Shown: piece after piece, positions 4,169-29,439 of the stretch
Numbering within the stretch: the stretch's first letter is position 1
Layout of the letters: each line of letters starts with the position of its first letter
Origin: Verrucomicrobiales bacterium
GTDB lineage: Bacteria > Verrucomicrobiota > Verrucomicrobiia > Limisphaerales > JAQGOV01
Length of the DNA: 40,865 bases
Direction of reading: 5' to 3'
Assembly (NCBI GenBank): GCA_028293425.1
Contig: JAQGOV010000071.1
Span: 1 to 40,865, forward strand
Made by a program: the position numbers and the translations under genes
Notes under the pieces: generated by a model
What the model was told of the DNA's origin: nothing
What the model saw: the letters and a program-made list of their open reading frames with translations, nothing else
The model's database searches: none

Positions 4169-6001
4169 TTAATCCTCTACGGACACCACGAGGTTGCTCA
4201 TGATGTAATCTTTGCGATCGGGAGTATTCTTGCCCATGTAAAAGGTCAGGATGTTTTGGGTGTCCGATTTGGGCGCATACTCCACCTGGCTGACGCGCAT
4301 ATCCTTGCCGATAAATTGTTTGAATTCGCTGGGTGAAATTTCACCCAAGCCTTTGAACCGGGTGATCTCGGGATTTTTCCCAAGCTTCGCAATCGCCGCC
4401 GCGCGCTCTGTCTCGGAGTAACAATAAATGGTCTGCTCCTTGTTGCGAACACGGAAGAGCGGGGTTTCCAAAACGTACAAGTGACCGTTCTGCACGACTT
4501 CTTCGAAGAACTTAAAGAAGTAGGTAATGAGCAGGTTGCGGATATGGAGGCCGTCCACGTCGGCATCGGTTGCCAGGATGACCTTGTCGTAGCGCAGACT
4601 GTTCACGGTGTCCTCAATGTCGAGGGTGCGCATGAGGTTGTACATTTCATCGTTCTTATAAACGATGTCGCGCTTGAGGTCCCAAACGTTGAGCGGTTTG
4701 CCTTTCAGCACGAAAATGGCCTGCGTATTGACGTCACGGCAGCTCACGATGGAGCCGGCGGCGGATTGACCTTCGGTAATGAAGACCATTGTGCCTTTGC
4801 CTTTGCCCTTTTCCTTGTTGAAATGCATTTTGCAATCCTTGAGCTGAGGGATGCGCAAGGTGATGGCTTTGGCCCGCTCGCGGGCGAGCTTTTTGACTTC
4901 CTGCAATTCCTTGCGGAGTTGCTTGGTGTCTTCGACCTTGGCCATGATCTTCTCCGCAATGGGCTTGTTGCGGTTAAAGAAATGGAGCAATTCCTCGCGA
5001 ACGCGGTTGACCAGTTCGGAACGGATTTCCGTGTTGCCGAGCTTGTTCTTGGTTTGCGACTCGAAGATCGGATCCTGAAGACGGATGGACACAGCGCCGA
5101 CCATGGACTCGCGCACGTCATCGCCTTCGTAGCTGCCTTTGGAGTATTCGTTGACAGCCTTGAGCAAACCTTCGCGAAAGGCGCTCAAGTGCGTGCCGCC
5201 GTCCGAGGTGAACTGGCCGTTCACGAACGAGAAGAACGTTTCGCCGTAACGGCTGTTGCTGTGGGTGAAGCAGAACTCGAGCGTTTTGCTGGAATAATAA
5301 AGCGGCTGGTAAATCGGCTCGCTGTTGTCCAGTTCGAGCTCCTCCATGATCAGATCCAATAGACCGTTGCGGGACTGGAAGCTCTTGCCATTGTAGGTCA
5401 GCTTGAGGCCGCTGTTCAGGTAGCTGTAATGACGCAGGCGGCGCTCGATGTACTCTTCTTTGTATTCGGTGACCTTAAAGATAACCGGGTCTGGCTCGAA
5501 CTGGATGTAGGTGCCGTTGGGCTCGTTGGCGGCTTTGCCCTTTTTCTCATCCTTGAGCTTGCCTTGCTTGAAAGTGGCTTCGACGTATTCGCCGTCGCGA
5601 TGACTGCGAACCACGAAGTGCTTGGACAGGGCGTTAACGGCCTTGGTGCCAACGCCGTTCAAACCGACGGAAAATTGGAATACCTGGTCGTTGTACTTGG
5701 CTCCGGTGTTAATCTTGGAAACGCAGTCAATGACTTTGCCCAGGGGGATGCCGCGGCCGAAATCGCGCACGGAAACGACATTGCCGGTGCGTTCGATCAT
5801 GATCTCCTTGCCATGGCCCATGATGAACTCGTCAATGGCGTTATCAATGACCTCTTTCAGGAGGATATAGCAGCCGTCGTCGTAATGTGAGCCGTCGCCG
5901 GTCCGGCCAATGTACATGCCCGTACGGAGCCGGATGTGCTCCAGCGAGGAAAGCGTCTTAATCTTGCTCTCGTCGTAATTCGTCTTTGCGTTTTCAGCCA
6001 T
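4169..6001 (-). CDS. parE: DNA topoisomerase IV subunit B (ATPase/Toprim)
   Basis: 610 residues from the ATG at 6001. An in-frame TTG at 6043 would add 14 residues; I prefer the ATG because the protein then begins at the conserved region preceding LSSLEHIRLRTGMYIG. The GHKL ATPase has E-V-I-D-N-A-I-D-E, D-F-G-R-G-I-P and G-L-N-G-V-G-T-K-A. The transducer domain is in the middle. The Toprim domain has I-T-E-G-Q-S-A-A-G-S (Glu410) and D-A-D-V-D-G (Asp479, Asp481). The length is close to the compact ParE of Bacteroidetes and Chlamydiae, without the extra insert of enterobacterial GyrB. The Gln at the EGDSA position is unusual. It is the first gene of the operon with parC. Confidence 0.9.
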   Translation of the reverse strand: MAENAKTNYDESKIKTLSSLEHIRLRTGMYIGRTGDGSHYDDGCYILLKEVIDNAIDEFIMGHGKEIMIERTGNVVSVRDFGRGIPLGKVIDCVSKINTGAKYNDQVFQFSVGLNGVGTKAVNALSKHFVVRSHRDGEYVEATFKQGKLKDEKKGKAANEPNGTYIQFEPDPVIFKVTEYKEEYIERRLRHYSYLNSGLKLTYNGKSFQSRNGLLDLIMEELELDNSEPIYQPLYYSSKTLEFCFTHSNSRYGETFFSFVNGQFTSDGGTHLSAFREGLLKAVNEYSKGSYEGDDVRESMVGAVSIRLQDPIFESQTKNKLGNTEIRSELVNRVREELLHFFNRNKPIAEKIMAKVEDTKQLRKELQEVKKLARERAKAITLRIPQLKDCKMHFNKEKGKGKGTMVFITEGQSAAGSIVSCRDVNTQAIFVLKGKPLNVWDLKRDIVYKNDEMYNLMRTLDIEDTVNSLRYDKVILATDADVDGLHIRNLLITYFFKFFEEVVQNGHLYVLETPLFRVRNKEQTIYCYSETERAAAIAKLGKNPEITRFKGLGEISPSEFKQFIGKDMRVSQVEYAPKSDTQNILTFYMGKNTPDRKDYIMSNLVVSVED

Positions 6002-17599: not shown

Positions 17600-18442
17600 A
17601 TGAGGCCGCTTTGGAAAGGTTCGATCAGTTTTGGGTTGGTCAATATTCCTGTCAGTCTTTACTCCGCAGTTCGTTCAGCGAAGAAGGTCGATTTTGACAT
17701 GCTTCGCGACAGTGACCATAGCCGCATCCATTACAAGCGAGTAGCTGAAGGCGATGGCAAAGAGGTGGAATGGAACCACATTGTTAAAGGCTACGCCTAC
17801 GAGAAAGACCGTTACGTCGTTATCAACGATGAGGATTTTAAACGGATTGCCATCAAGTCCAACCAAACCGTGGACATTCGCGAGTTCGTGAATCTTTCCG
17901 ACGTCGATCCCCGGTTCTTTGATGAACCGTATTTCCTGGCGCCTGAAAAAGGTGGGGCCAAGGCTTACATTCTTCTTCGGGAAGCCCTCGAGCGCTCTGG
18001 CAAGGCCGGTGTATCCAAAGTGGTTATTCGTCCACCACGAGAGCATCTGGCCGTGGTGAGGCCCCTGGATGGCGTCCTCATGCTCGAACTCATGCATTTT
18101 AGTGACGAGTTGCGCGATCCTTCTGAGCTTAAAATAGCAGCCCAGGCCGTCGGGCAGAAGGAACTCGATATGGCCCTCTCGCTGATTAACAATATGTCCG
18201 GACGCTGGGAGCCTCAAAAATACCGCGATGAATATCGCGATGCCCTCATGGATATGATCCAGCAGAAGATCAAATCAAAAGGCAAGAAGCTGCCCGCGCC
18301 CAAGGAGCAGCGCGCGCCCGCTTCGTCCAAGGTAATTGATCTCGTTTCGATTCTGCAGAAAAGTTTGTCCCAGGTCGAAGGCTCAGGACATAAAAAGACT
18401 AGCCCCAAACGGAAATCTGCGGCACGCAAGAAGGCAGCGTAA
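17600..18442 (+). CDS. ku: Non-homologous end joining protein Ku
   Basis: 280 residues. Bacterial Ku homodimers ring double-strand DNA ends and recruit LigD. The core opens with the hallmark R-P-L-W-K-G-S-I-S-F-G-L-V-N-I-P-V and continues through Y-E-K-D-R-Y-V-V-I and A-Y-I-L-L-R-E-A-L to the conserved helical end at about residue 230. The C-terminal tail (about 230-280) is Lys/Ala/Pro rich with K-R-K-S-A-A-R-K-K, as in Ku forms whose basic tail helps bind DNA or LigD. The matching ligD lies at 26800-29439 on the same strand, separated by 8 kb that includes a mobile island. Confidence 0.95.
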   Translation: MRPLWKGSISFGLVNIPVSLYSAVRSAKKVDFDMLRDSDHSRIHYKRVAEGDGKEVEWNHIVKGYAYEKDRYVVINDEDFKRIAIKSNQTVDIREFVNLSDVDPRFFDEPYFLAPEKGGAKAYILLREALERSGKAGVSKVVIRPPREHLAVVRPLDGVLMLELMHFSDELRDPSELKIAAQAVGQKELDMALSLINNMSGRWEPQKYRDEYRDALMDMIQQKIKSKGKKLPAPKEQRAPASSKVIDLVSILQKSLSQVEGSGHKKTSPKRKSAARKKAA

Positions 18443-21724: not shown

Positions 21725-21762
21725 GCCTCCGCGCCAGCCCACTTTGCAGTCCTGAAGGGACA
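21725..21762 (+). repeat. Dispersed 38-base repeat, copy A (left part of split composite repeat)
   Basis: Begins GCCTCCGCGCCAGCCCAC and ends CCTGAAGGGACA. It matches 24297-24334 at 35 of 38 positions in the same orientation. The sequence that would normally continue from it appears to be interrupted by the IS element at 21775. Confidence 0.8.
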
Positions 21763-21778
21763 AGAATTCCTTAGATGA

Positions 21779-21800
21779 CATGGGTATTGGCGGGTGAGCG
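21779..21800 (+). repeat. Subterminal inverted repeat of IS, left
   Basis: CATGGGTATTGG followed by CGGGTGAGCG. It matches the inverted right repeat at 23173-23194 in 15 of 22 positions, with TGAGC and ATGGG identical. Confidence 0.6.
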
Positions 21801-21820
21801 AAACTGCGCTACACCCAATT

Positions 21821-22897
21821 ATGAAACAAAACACCAATACCCACAAAACTATCTCACCATCAAAGCCACTTAAAACCAAGTGCATTAAGCTGGGCATCGA
21901 TGTTCATGCCGACAGCTATCGGGTGGTGCGGCAAATCGATAACGCCACTCCCCAGCCGGCACAGAAGTTCACCCCCAAGGATTTTCTCCTCTGGGCCAAG
22001 AAGCAACTGGAGCAGGCCGAGGCGGTCTACAGCTGTTATGAAGCTGGCCCAATGGGCTACAGTTTGCACCGGGCTCTGGAAGCCATGGGCATTCACAATG
22101 TCGTGGTTCGTCCTGTAGATTTAGACGAACTCCATAAGGGCGTTAAGACGGACAATACCGACGCCCGAGCTTTGGTTCTGCGGCTGGACCGCTACGTTCA
22201 AGGCAACCGCAACGCGCTCGCTATTGTGAAAGTGCCCACTCCGGCCCAGGAGCTGGCTCGCAGCCAGAGCCGCCAAAGGGAGCAGTTACTCTCCCACTGC
22301 CTGCGCCTGGAGGCCCAAGGCCGCAGTTTATTGCTCTTCAATGGCGTGCGCCTCAAAGGTCGCTGGTGGCAGCCGGCCCAGTGGAATCGGTTAGAAGTCC
22401 AATTGGCTGCACCATTGCTGGAACTTTTGCGTGTTCTGCGGGAAGTGCTCCTGGCAGTTGACAAGCAACTCCAAGCCGCACTTACCAGGATCCAAGAAGC
22501 GGCCACGCCCCAACCCAAAGGTGTGGGGGCCTTGACCAGCCAAGTGCTCGAGCGGGAGATCCTATGCTGGGACCGATTTGAAAATCGCCGTCAGGTTGCA
22601 AGCATGACTGGCATGTGTCCGGGCGTGCGCAGCAGCGGCAACAAAAGCCGCCATCTCTCCATCACCAAGCACGGGAATCGCCGCATGCGCACCGCCTTGA
22701 TCGAGTTGGCCTGGCGCTGGGTACGGTTTCAGCCGGATTACCAACCGGTGAAAAAGTGCATGGCCATCTTCAAGAATCCCAAGGCGACTGGGGCGGCCAA
22801 GAAGAAGGCGATTGTGGCTGTGGGCCGGCACATTGCCATTGACCTGTGGCGCTTGAACACGGGCAGAACCAGTGCGGAAAAACTTTGTCTCTGTTAA
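21821..22897 (+). CDS. IS110-family DEDD transposase/recombinase
   Basis: 358 residues from the ATG at 21821 (a GTG at 21794 would add nine). The N-terminal RuvC-like DEDD domain shows G-I-D-V-H-A-D (Asp27), C-Y-E-A-G-P-M-G (Glu74) and K-T-D-N-T-D-A-R (Asp111, Asp114). A helical linker follows at about 120-230. The C-terminal Tnp domain has G-V-G-A-L-T-S, F-E-N-R-R-Q-V-A-S-M-T-G, and S-S-G-N-K-S-R-H-L-S-I-T-K-H-G-N, where one of the serines is the expected nucleophile. The enzyme cuts and rejoins DNA using a bridge RNA in studied members. All key residues are present, so it may be active. Confidence 0.93.
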   Translation: MKQNTNTHKTISPSKPLKTKCIKLGIDVHADSYRVVRQIDNATPQPAQKFTPKDFLLWAKKQLEQAEAVYSCYEAGPMGYSLHRALEAMGIHNVVVRPVDLDELHKGVKTDNTDARALVLRLDRYVQGNRNALAIVKVPTPAQELARSQSRQREQLLSHCLRLEAQGRSLLLFNGVRLKGRWWQPAQWNRLEVQLAAPLLELLRVLREVLLAVDKQLQAALTRIQEAATPQPKGVGALTSQVLEREILCWDRFENRRQVASMTGMCPGVRSSGNKSRHLSITKHGNRRMRTALIELAWRWVRFQPDYQPVKKCMAIFKNPKATGAAKKKAIVAVGRHIAIDLWRLNTGRTSAEKLCLC

Positions 22898-23172
22898 AAC
22901 GATGAGCTGAAAAGAAGAAGAGCACTTTTTGGAACGGCGCGCGCCCGCCCCTGGGCTTGGGTCAGCTGGACTGAACCCGTGTCTTAGATTGGGTGCGCTC
23001 GTTCTTCTTCCTGACACTGAATCGTCAATTGGCACCGAAAAATTCGCGTGCAGATAGCAGGCTAGAGCAGCGCAAGAACTCAAAGCTGCCACCGAAGAGG
23101 AAACGAACCAAAAATGAAGAAAACAAAGACCACTTCTAATGAAAGAAAAGAAAACATGAACTGAAAAACACT
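22898..23172 (+). ncRNA. Predicted bridge RNA region in right end of IS1111 element
   Basis: The 3' non-coding part of the element. GAAGAAGAGC (22914-22923) can pair with GCTC-G-TTCTTCTTC (22997-23010) to close a large domain. Inside, GGGTCAG (22959-22965) pairs with CTGAACCC (22971-22978) with a small loop. In the IS1111 group the target/donor-recognising bridge RNA is known to be encoded in this position. I can see structure and position but not the guide loops themselves. Confidence 0.5.
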
Positions 23173-23194
23173 TGCTCACTTGACATTCCCCATA
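23173..23194 (+). repeat. Subterminal inverted repeat of IS, right
   Basis: TGCTCACTTGACATTCC followed by CCATA. When inverted it aligns with 21779-21800 at 15 of 22 positions. Confidence 0.6.
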
Positions 23195-23198
23195 GCAG

Positions 23199-23236
23199 CC
23201 CAGGGCACAAGCGAGTCTTCGAGCCGACGCCCTGGG
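23199..23236. repeat. REP-like palindrome flanking the IS (right part of split composite repeat)
   Basis: CCCAGGGC (23199-23206) pairs with GCCCTGGG (23229-23236). Palindromes of this CCCAGGG...CCCTGGG type are common intergenic elements in Verrucomicrobia and Planctomycetes (from general knowledge, not searched). A second hairpin-prone stretch with CTCCGGGAG follows near 23277. Confidence 0.6.
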
Positions 23237-24284: not shown

Positions 24285-24296
24285 AAGCATGTTCCC

Positions 24297-24334
24297 GCCT
24301 CTGCGCCAGCGCACCTTGCAGTCCTGAAGGGACA
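24297..24334 (+). repeat. Dispersed 38-base repeat, copy B
   Basis: Matches 21725-21762 at 35 of 38 positions. It lies just outside the cassette boundary, so copies A and B bracket the whole mobile island in direct orientation. The following 24335-24851 (517 bases) has no gene I can support; it is low in coding signal and reads like decayed intergenic repeat sequence. Confidence 0.8.
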
Positions 24335-26756: not shown

Positions 26757-26799
26757 CCCGAGGATGGTGAAACAGCCCGGTTGATCTCGGTTTTCTTTG

Positions 26800-29439
26800 A
26801 TGTCACTTTTCCAGGTGGGAAAGAGGACTTCACTCAATATTAAAGGGCAGGAGATCGGTGTTTCGAACCTGGAGCATGTGCTTTTCCCTGGCGGTGGCTT
26901 TACCAAAGGCCAGGTCATCGATTACTACATCCGAGCTTCCAAATACATCCTGCCCCATTTAAAGGACCGGCCGCTCACCTTGAAAATGCAACCGAAAGGT
27001 GTTCATGGGGAAGCCACCTATGAGCGCGATGCCCGCAAGTTCACGCCTGCGTGGGTGAAGACGGCGGATGTTTGGCGGAAAAGCGGCGCCTCTCAAATAC
27101 ATTACCTGCTCGCGAACGATTTGCCGACACTGGTGTGGCTGGCCAACCTGAACAACATCGAGATGCACACCTTTCTCGCCAGGGCACCGAAGGTTGAGCA
27201 GCCAACCATGGTGGTGTTCGATCTCGATCCGGGCGAAGGTGCCGATATCCTGCAGTGCGCACAAGTCGCCGTCTGGCTCAAGGAGGCCTTTGATCATTTG
27301 AAGCTGAAGTCTTTGATCAAGTCATCCGGGTCCAAAGGCCTGCATCTCTATGTGCCGTTGAACACCCCGGTGACCTATGAACAGACTCAGCCTTTTGCCC
27401 AGGCAATTGCTGAATGGATCGAGACGGAACATCCGGAGCTTGTCACCTCTTCCATGGACAAGCTGGCTCGCGCAGGAAAGGTATTCGTGGACTGGAACCA
27501 AAATGCCTCTTACAAGTCCACGGTTTGTGTTTACTCGTTGCGAGCGAAGAAGGACCAGCCGTTTGTTTCTTTTCCGATGAGATGGTCCGAGTTGATCTCG
27601 GGAATGGAGGACAACAATTTCTCCGTCTTTGCTGTCAGTCCTGAAGCAGCCCTCAAGCGATTAGAAAAATCCGGTGACCTGTTCACTCCGGTTCTCAAGC
27701 TCAAGCAAAAGTTGCCTGTAGATATTCTGAAGGTATTGAATAAAGCACGAACAAAGCCCAGGCACAATCCGCCGAGTGTCCAAACACCGGAACCACACCT
27801 TGAGGCCTATTGGGCAAAGCGAAACTTTGACACGACTGCGGAACCGAGCGGCCACAAACGGGTTCAGCAATCCCAAAGCAAGGACCGGCTATTCGTGATT
27901 CAAAAACACGATGCCAGCCACCTGCACTACGATTTCCGCCTGGAAATGCAAGGTGTCCTTCGCTCCTGGGCGGTCCCGAAAGGTCCGCCACTGCAGATCG
28001 GTGAACGTCGGCTGGCCATGCACGTTGAGGACCATCCGATGGACTACGCGCACTTTGAAGGCACGATTCCCGAGGGGCAATACGGGGGCGGCACGGTCAT
28101 GGTGTGGGACACCGGCACCTATCGAGTGAGAGAGGATAATCCAGTGCGGGCTTATTATGGGGGAAAGATTTCGCTCGAGCTTCATGGCAAAAAGCTCAAG
28201 GGCCAATGGGCCCTGGTGCGCGCCCAGAAAGCGGAGGACGGCCAAAAGGAGCGCTGGTTCCTCATTAAAACGGAAAAGGACGCGCCGCCAATCAGTTCCC
28301 GACGAGACGATGCTTCCGTCCTCACGGGTCGCTCCATGGAGGAAATTGCCAAGGACAGGAAGAGTGCCCAATGGAACAGCAATCGCGCGCCGGGCAGGGA
28401 GCCAACGCCCGCTCCCGACATCGAAGCTGAATTGGAGAAGTTGTTGCGTCAGTTGCCGAGGGCAGAGCCCCGGTTTGTCGAACCGATGAAGGCACGACTT
28501 GTGAGCAAATTTTCTGAAAGCCCTGGCTGGATTTATGAGTTAAAATTTGATGGTTACCGTGCGCTCGCTGTGAAGCAGGGCTCCCGTGTGCACCTGCTAT
28601 CCCGCAAAAATCTTAGCTTGAATAGTCAATTTCCCGAGCTGGTGGAGGCTGTTAAAAAGCTAAAGGTAAAGCACGCGGTTCTGGATGGAGAGATTGTGGC
28701 GCTGGACGAAAAGGGGCGACCTTCTTTTCTCGCCATTCACTCGCCCATTCAGCAGAACGGGGCTCGATTTGTCTACTATTACGCTTTCGATTTGATCAAC
28801 CTCGAAAAGCGCGATCTGCGGAGTCTTCCCTTGCAGGCACGCAAGCAATTCCTGGAAGCTGCTCTTGCAGAGGCTCCCGAGCATCTGCGGTTTTCCTCGA
28901 ACCTCGAAGCAGCTCCCAAGCGCATCGTGGCTGAAACCCGAAGACAAGGTTTGGAAGGTGTGGTTGCCAAGCGAGCGGACTCCACCTACGAAGCGGGCGA
29001 AAGGAGTGGGGCGTGGGTAAAGTACAAGACATCCCAAGAACAGGAATTCGTCGTTGGAGGCTACCGCCTGACGCGCGATGGCAAAGACTTCGATTGCCTC
29101 CTGGTGGGCTATTACGAGAACCACCAATTCCGCTTCGCCGCAAAAGTTAAAAGCGGCTTCGGCCCCGAACATAAGAAAGTTTTGGGGAAGAAATTCAAAG
29201 GGCTTCACGCCCGCCGCTCACCGTTCAAAGACACACCCAAATGCAAGGGGCCTGGCCTGGAGGAGGAAAACACGGTCTCCGATGTGGAAGCTCGCACGTG
29301 CGTTTGGTTGAAGCCAAAGGTTGTGGTTGAGGTGGGTTTCACTGGATGGACGGTTGGCGGTCACCTTCGCCACTCAGTGTTCAATGGTATCCGTGAGGAC
29401 AAAAACGCGCAGGACGTGGTGCGGGAAAGCGCTGAATAA
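26800..29439 (+). CDS. ligD: ATP-dependent DNA ligase LigD (Pol-PE-Lig)
   Basis: 879 residues from the ATG at 26800 (a TTG lies one codon earlier). It has three domains in the order seen in mycobacteria. The primase-polymerase (about 10-300) has the metal motif V-V-F-D-L-D-P-G and S-S-G-S-K-G-L-H. The 3'-phosphoesterase (about 350-510) has H-L-H-Y-D-F-R-L-E and a conserved H-V-E-D-H-P. The ligase (about 570-870) has adenylation motif Y-E-L-K-F-D-G-Y-R with Lys582, D-G-E-I-V-A-L, G-V-V-A-K-R and the OB-fold end. LigD trims, fills and seals ends held by Ku. A linker of about 60 residues separates PE from ligase. All catalytic residues I can check are present. Confidence 0.95.
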   Translation: MSLFQVGKRTSLNIKGQEIGVSNLEHVLFPGGGFTKGQVIDYYIRASKYILPHLKDRPLTLKMQPKGVHGEATYERDARKFTPAWVKTADVWRKSGASQIHYLLANDLPTLVWLANLNNIEMHTFLARAPKVEQPTMVVFDLDPGEGADILQCAQVAVWLKEAFDHLKLKSLIKSSGSKGLHLYVPLNTPVTYEQTQPFAQAIAEWIETEHPELVTSSMDKLARAGKVFVDWNQNASYKSTVCVYSLRAKKDQPFVSFPMRWSELISGMEDNNFSVFAVSPEAALKRLEKSGDLFTPVLKLKQKLPVDILKVLNKARTKPRHNPPSVQTPEPHLEAYWAKRNFDTTAEPSGHKRVQQSQSKDRLFVIQKHDASHLHYDFRLEMQGVLRSWAVPKGPPLQIGERRLAMHVEDHPMDYAHFEGTIPEGQYGGGTVMVWDTGTYRVREDNPVRAYYGGKISLELHGKKLKGQWALVRAQKAEDGQKERWFLIKTEKDAPPISSRRDDASVLTGRSMEEIAKDRKSAQWNSNRAPGREPTPAPDIEAELEKLLRQLPRAEPRFVEPMKARLVSKFSESPGWIYELKFDGYRALAVKQGSRVHLLSRKNLSLNSQFPELVEAVKKLKVKHAVLDGEIVALDEKGRPSFLAIHSPIQQNGARFVYYYAFDLINLEKRDLRSLPLQARKQFLEAALAEAPEHLRFSSNLEAAPKRIVAETRRQGLEGVVAKRADSTYEAGERSGAWVKYKTSQEQEFVVGGYRLTRDGKDFDCLLVGYYENHQFRFAAKVKSGFGPEHKKVLGKKFKGLHARRSPFKDTPKCKGPGLEEENTVSDVEARTCVWLKPKVVVEVGFTGWTVGGHLRHSVFNGIREDKNAQDVVRESAE

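What the first reader, a model, noticed from the sequence alone, without database searches (positions are those of the whole stretch)
21775..23195. IS1111-group element inserted in a dispersed palindromic repeat, with a predicted bridge RNA
The left flank ends in a CCTGAAGGGACA repeat and CCTTAG; the right flank starts TAGCAGCCCAGGGC, one arm of a palindrome completed at 23229-23236. Removing the element joins these into one plausible intergenic repeat. The transposase has all four DEDD residues. The long 3' non-coding end (22898-23172) is structured. Known IS110-family biology says such RNA guides target choice, so this copy may be programmed for the repeat family itself, giving many safe landing sites.
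Basis: partly seen in the sequence, partly recalled or inferred. Interest (0 to 1): 0.7.

Follow-up and report, generated by a model that had tools for sequence, protein, structure and literature searches.

The report
RNA-guided IS1111 element in palindromic repeat
An intact jumping gene carries its own guide RNA, whose two target-reading stretches match a palindromic repeat scattered through the host genome, and its relatives in other bacteria carry guides rewritten to match their own hosts' repeats; this is a well-supported new example of a recently discovered mechanism.

Summary
An intact IS1111-group element lies at 21773-23196 (1424 bp), with a DEDD transposase, subterminal inverted repeats and the 7/3-bp end extensions typical of the group. 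It splits a dispersed two-hairpin repeat; at least nine uninterrupted copies in the same draft genome fix the insertion point to CTTAG^CCCAGGG (core AG).

The 3' non-coding region encodes a two-loop guide RNA (22926-23105). A covariance model built without this element finds it at E 2.8e-22, and 23 of 29 base pairs covary. Loop 1 carries CCCTGGGCT and CTTAG, which pair with the two target strands in the order reported for IS1111 seekRNAs. Across related elements the guides match each element's own flanks (0 of 20,000 and 0 of 50,000 permutations). A loop-2 guide matches the element's own right end in 25 of 26, through three apparently independent changes.

Four of four elements tested sit in repeats that are multicopy in their own hosts, each with a different guide. 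"Many landing sites" is only partly right: here the repeat is low-copy, three copies match the 12-nt guide perfectly, and there is one IS copy.

New member of a known kind (ISPa11 and IS621 also target REPs).

The parts
21773..23196 (+). whole IS1111-group element (1424 bp), core AG; equivalent reading 21775-23198
   Evidence: comparison with uninterrupted repeat copies and 7-bp/3-bp end extensions (definition from PMC11187229)
21780..21799 (+). left subterminal inverted repeat ATGGGTATTGGCGGGTGAGC
   Evidence: imperfect inverse of 23174-23193; left end AG-ATGNC-ATG conserved in relatives
23174..23193 (+). right subterminal inverted repeat GCTCACTTGACATTCCCCAT, holding a conserved TTGACA that would be the -35 box of a circle-junction promoter (inferred)
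21794..22897 (+). DEDD transposase (GTG start at 21794 or ATG at 21821)
   Evidence: Pfam PF02371 E 2.7e-17 and PF01548 E 5e-5; NCBIfam NF033542 'IS110 family RNA-guided transposase' 153.4 bits, cut-off 140; D36/E83/D120/D123/S281 invariant
22926..23105 (+). two-loop bridge/seek RNA
   Evidence: CM built without this element: 87.8 bits, E 2.8e-22; covariation in 23 of 29 pairs
22932..23004 (+). target-loop domain, closing stem 22932-22946 with 22991-23004
   Evidence: helix 1: 94.3% of cells paired, 8 of 12 pairs with two-sided changes
22949..22957 (+). guide CCCTGGGCT, complementary to the top strand of the target AG^CCCAGGG
   Evidence: 9-nt match, best of 26 flanks for this RNA; permutation tests
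22983..22987 (+). guide CTTAG, pairs with the bottom strand of the target (same letters as the left flank)
   Evidence: anchored permutation test 0/50000
23024..23030 (+). possible left donor guide GTCAATT (element's left end reversed: GTCATCT)
   Evidence: 5 of 7 letters by eye; weakly supported across relatives
23054..23060 (+). right donor guide ATAGCAG, same letters as the IS right end plus core
   Evidence: own-end version found in 25 of 26 elements, four end classes
21749..21774 (+). left part of the interrupted repeat: small hairpin GTCCTGAAGGGAC, linker and CCTTAG (last two bases, AG, are the core)
   Evidence: uninterrupted copies in the genome
23197..23236 (+). right part of the interrupted repeat: core AG and large hairpin CCCAGGGC...GCCCTGGG
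   Evidence: uninterrupted copies in the genome

Best explanation
It is an intact IS1111-group insertion sequence whose 3' non-coding region makes a two-loop guide (bridge/seek) RNA. Loop 1 reads the target: CCCTGGGCT pairs with the top strand (AG^CCCAGGG) and CTTAG with the bottom strand, so the element enters one dispersed palindromic (REP-like) repeat at the foot of its large hairpin, in one orientation. Loop 2 reads the element's own abutted ends (ATAGCAG), so that the DEDD recombinase can join the circular element to the repeat at the AG core without loss of target bases. Shown by sequence: ends, empty sites, RNA fold covariation, and agreement of guides with flanks and ends across relatives. 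Inferred: expression, circle formation, RNA binding by the transposase and present activity.
For: Empty copies of the joined repeat in the same genome. Conserved IS ends and AG core in relatives. RNA covariation, 0/500 shuffles on all measures, 91.8% of cells paired against about 45% when slid. Independent CM match, E 2.8e-22. Guides match own flanks: top strand 0/20000 (n=26) and 0/100000 with one element per target class (n=14); bottom strand 0/50000 (n=18). Donor guide agrees with the own right end in 25 of 26. Related elements sit in multicopy repeats of their own hosts with different guides; for L015 the guide CTTTGGAG fits the repeat consensus GTTTGGAG better than the occupied flank CTCGGAG.
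Against: Single copy in one draft MAG, so no repeated insertion is seen in this host. No expression data. Energy of folding alone is unremarkable (z -1.87). Top-strand guide matches are weak in L018, L019 and L021. Left donor guide only partly matched.
Confidence: 0.93

Rival explanations
1. The RNA reads only the target. The second loop is precursor sequence or a structural part, and the transposase recognises the IS ends through the subterminal inverted repeats (compatible with the short seekRNA of PMC11187229 being sufficient).
For: An 82-nt target-only seekRNA suffices for ISEc11 (PMC11187229). The left donor guide is only partly matched here.
Against: The loop-2 guide follows changes of the IS right end in apparently three separate lineages (AAG in L031, AGG in L036-L042, GGG in L012), 25 of 26 elements agreeing. 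The loop-2 stem covaries (helices 3 and 4).
Confidence: 0.25
2. The element reached the repeat by chance or by a preference for hairpins alone, not by RNA guiding; the guide matches arise because repeats and RNA are both rich in GGG/CCC palindromes.
For: Many targets in this clade are next to palindromes, and the guide is itself part of a CCCTGGG motif.
Against: Permuted flanks, many of them also GC-rich and palindromic, match far less well. All three exact unoccupied 12-mers CTTAGCCCAGGG in the genome lie in this repeat, with about 1.2 expected anywhere by composition. The insertion point is at the AG core in all empty-site comparisons.
Confidence: 0.03
3. The element is a stranded, no longer mobile relic.
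For: Single copy although empty target sites remain.
Against: Open frame without stops, both ends, core, RNA fold and both target guides are intact and mutually consistent.
Confidence: 0.15

Closest known systems
IS1111-family elements with seekRNA (ISEc11, ISPa11, ISKpn4; PMC11187229)
   Same: DEDD transposase, subterminal inverted repeats with 7/3-bp extensions, 3' non-coding region with a guide RNA, top-strand match before bottom-strand match; ISPa11 also targets a REP.
   Different: Different host phylum, transposase, guide and target repeat. A second loop with a donor guide that covaries with the IS end is evident here; that paper does not use one.
IS621 and bridge RNA (IS110 group; PMC11208160, PMC11208158)
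   Same: Two internal-loop domains, one for target and one for donor, guiding a DEDD recombinase; REP target in E. coli.
   Different: RNA lies downstream of the transposase gene rather than upstream, ends have long subterminal inverted repeats, and the order of target matches is reversed. Sequence similarity of the protein to IS621 is marginal (E 0.062).
REP repeats / REPtrons with RAYT transposases (PMC3733652, PMC2817692)
   Same: The target is a dispersed palindrome. A similar CCCAGGG hairpin flanks an IS200-type transposase gene in inverted orientation on contig C291.
   Different: Low copy number in this host, two hairpins in series, TTAG where classical REPs have GTAG; mobilisation by a RAYT was not tested.

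Membership tests
IS1111 group of the IS110 family | DEDD transposase with RuvC-like N-terminal domain and PF02371 C-terminal domain with an SG motif | tested here: met
   PF02371, PF01548 (weak), NF033542 above cut-off; D36/E83/D120/D123 and S281 invariant
IS1111 group of the IS110 family | Subterminal inverted repeats with 7-bp left and 3-bp right extensions | tested here: met
   21780-21799 and 23174-23193, imperfect over 20 bp; extensions AGATGAC and AGC
IS1111 group of the IS110 family | Long non-coding region downstream of the transposase gene | tested here: met
   22898-23196, about 300 bp, against about 20-50 bp upstream
[quoted passage not shown]
   order as in PMC11187229
seekRNA / bridge RNA guided IS | Donor-binding guides matching the element's own ends | tested here: met
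   Right donor guide agrees in 25 of 26 elements; the left donor guide is only partial
seekRNA / bridge RNA guided IS | RNA expressed and bound by the transposase; transposition through a circle | not testable with these tools
   Needs expression and transposition experiments
REP (repetitive extragenic palindrome) as target | Dispersed palindromic repeat in several copies in the genome | tested here: met
   At least nine uninterrupted copies
REP (repetitive extragenic palindrome) as target | GTAG tag, high copy number and RAYT association | tested here: inconclusive
   TTAG rather than GTAG, low copy number; a related hairpin flanks an IS200/RAYT-like gene on C291

The most novel reading that the evidence does not exclude
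In this verrucomicrobial IS1111 clade the RNA is a true two-loop bridge RNA whose donor guide coevolves with the IS right end, and whose target guides are repeatedly rewritten to the consensus of whichever palindromic repeat family is abundant in the current host; retargeting to host repeats would be a strategy of the clade rather than a set of isolated cases.
Probability: 0.6. Interest if true: 0.55.

Novelty: new member of a known kind. Interest (0 to 1): 0.45.

Why it matters
RNA-guided IS110/IS1111 recombinases are being developed as DNA-writing tools, and how their guides change in nature is little studied. The roughly 26 related elements here form a natural reprogramming series with target and guide both known. 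They also bear on an open point, whether IS1111 RNAs read the donor end as well as the target: the covarying donor guide says they probably do, and names the letters to mutate.

Tried and rejected
Rfam had no match. Folding energy alone was not convincing (z -1.87). Unanchored matching of the bottom-strand guide was not significant (1447 of 20000) because the guide is short; anchoring it next to the core in the loop made it so. Gapped local alignment failed to find the inverted repeats; motif scans succeeded. A profile of the repeat found only one weak match in a 612-kb sample of the genome, so 'high-copy repeat' is rejected for this host. My first impression that relative L018 sits in a tRNA-Met gene was not supported: ARAGORN finds no tRNA in its joined flanks. 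No relatives were found in viral contigs, and plasmid matches were all below 60% identity. Non-autonomous copies of the element in the genome: none found.

Full report
Observation. The window belongs to a 7.43-Mb, 750-contig draft genome (88% complete, 6% contamination). The relatives of the transposase found in named genomes are from a Verrucomicrobiaceae MAG. The element has an intact open frame (GTG 21794 or ATG 21821 to 22897). It matches Transposase_20 (E 2.7e-17) and, below that model's bit cut-off, DEDD_Tnp_IS110 (E 5e-5) in Pfam, and the NCBIfam model 'IS110 family RNA-guided transposase' above its cut-off. D36, E83, D120, D123 and S281 are invariant in an alignment of 18 members.

Ends and empty sites. 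A search of the genome with the element plus flanks finds no second copy of the IS, but it does find uninterrupted copies of the flanking repeat: C194:2516-2592 and C624:7255-7337 have both halves side by side. Further searches add C309, C648, C514, C614, C296, C220 and C291. They read (C/A/T)TTAG^CCCA..., except C648, which has TTAC. The core is therefore AG, and the element is 21773-23196 with a 7-bp left extension, a 3-bp right extension and subterminal inverted repeats, as defined for IS1111 (PMC11187229). The repeat has a small hairpin (GTCCTGAAGGGAC), a linker, then a larger hairpin (CCCAGGGC...GCCCTGGG); the IS lies at the foot of the larger one. The exact 12-mer CTTAGCCCAGGG occurs in three unoccupied sites of the genome, all inside this repeat, against about 1.2 expected anywhere by base composition.

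The RNA. Forty-one of 320 genomes of the same order, this one included, carry the transposase or a relative at E below 1e-40. Aligning 16 RNA regions gives a structure in which 91.8% of cells pair, against about 45% when partners are slid; 23 of 29 pairs have two-sided changes and 0 of 500 shuffles reach any of the five measures. The structure was derived from the same alignment, so the slid control favours it somewhat. A covariance model built from 15 relatives without this element finds the window RNA at 22926-23105, 87.8 bits, E 2.8e-22, and nothing else in the window. In the whole genome there is no other credible match (next E 0.88).

Target guides. The first loop carries CCCTGGGCT (22949-22957), complementary to AG^CCCAGGG, and CTTAG (22983-22987), identical to the left flank. 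This is the order (top-strand match first) reported for IS1111 seekRNAs. In 26 elements the longest match of the RNA to its own right flank averages 7.5 nt, against 5.9 for permuted flanks (0 of 20000). With one element per target class and the search limited to the target-loop region it is 7.6 against 5.2 (0 of 100000). The bottom-strand guide, anchored next to the core, gives 0 of 50000; searched for without anchoring it is not significant.

Donor guide. The second loop carries ATAGCAG (23054-23060), the same letters as the right end plus core (CATAGC^AG). In 25 of 26 elements the RNA has its own exact version: ATAGCAG for AGC ends, ATAAGAG for the AAG end of L031, ATAGGAG for the AGG ends of L036-L042 (not found in L038), and ATGGGAG for the GGG end of L012. 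L030 and L032, which share L031's target, keep AGC, so that change looks local. No tree was built, so 'three independent changes' is an inference. The left donor guide is only partly matched. Durrant et al. predicted donor-binding nucleotides in IS1111 RNAs by inspection (PMC11208160), while Siddiquee et al. found that a short target-only RNA suffices for ISEc11 (PMC11187229). The covariation here favours donor reading.

Is it aimed at the repeat family? For three relatives I searched their hosts for the joined site. L014 (64% identical transposase; guides CCCCAGGC and TTATAG) gives about 20 matching places, most of them near-full copies. L015 (GCCGCACT and CTTTGGAG) gives about 20, often in inverted pairs. 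L033 (GCGCCCT and TGGTAG) gives more than 30, many of them partial. The L015 repeat has no match in the window's genome. In L015 the guide CTTTGGAG matches the repeat consensus GTTTGGAG better than the flank it occupies, CTCGGAG, which is what a guide aimed at the family would look like. So four of four tested elements sit in multicopy repeats of their own host, each with its own guide. The three were chosen because their flanks looked palindromic, so this is not an unbiased sample.

What the target repeat is. A hairpin of the same type (CCCAGGG...CCCTGGG after AAAG) flanks an IS200-type (RAYT-like) transposase gene on both sides, in inverted orientation, on contig C291. This suggests a REP-type repeat but does not prove it. 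In other relatives the flanks look like integron attC sites (L030, L039, L042) or like the GGGGTCAG ends of tyrosine-transposase elements (L017, L020, L023); these are leads by eye, not tests.

Limits. There is one IS copy, a draft MAG, and no expression or transposition data. 'Many safe landing sites' holds only modestly for this host. Some relatives have weak guide matches (L018, L019, L021).

Verdict. The element is a new member of the IS1111 bridge/seekRNA class, for which REP targets are already known (ISPa11, IS621; PMC11187229, PMC11208160, PMC1525189). The retargeting series and the donor-guide covariation give it moderate interest.

Noticed in passing
window 24294-24334: A second, partial copy of the repeat (small hairpin CAGTCCTGAAGGGACA and its upstream part, without the large hairpin) lies about 1.1 kb downstream of the IS.
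   Followed up: partly
window 17600-18442 and 26797-29439: A Ku protein gene and a LigD gene (polymerase, phosphoesterase and ligase domains) lie on either side of the IS: bacterial non-homologous end joining.
   Followed up: no
L057 (G000:C291) 4635-5311: An IS200-type transposase gene flanked on both sides, in inverted orientation, by hairpins like the large hairpin of the target repeat: a possible REPtron and source of the repeat.
   Followed up: partly
L017, L020, L023, L026, L029: This group of relatives lies at AAAG^GGGTCA; together with the core the site reads GGGGTCAG, which fits the GGGGWSAS motif described for the ends of tyrosine-transposase elements (TIRYTs) in PMC3733652.
   Followed up: no
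L030, L031, L032, L036, L037, L039, L040, L042: Flanks contain GCCTAAC or GTTAGGC-like cores, as in integron attC sites, a known IS1111 target.
   Followed up: no
L023, L015 (RNA region): L023's RNA seems to lack the top-strand guide segment and L015's lacks part of the donor domain: possible decayed elements or assembly gaps.
   Followed up: no
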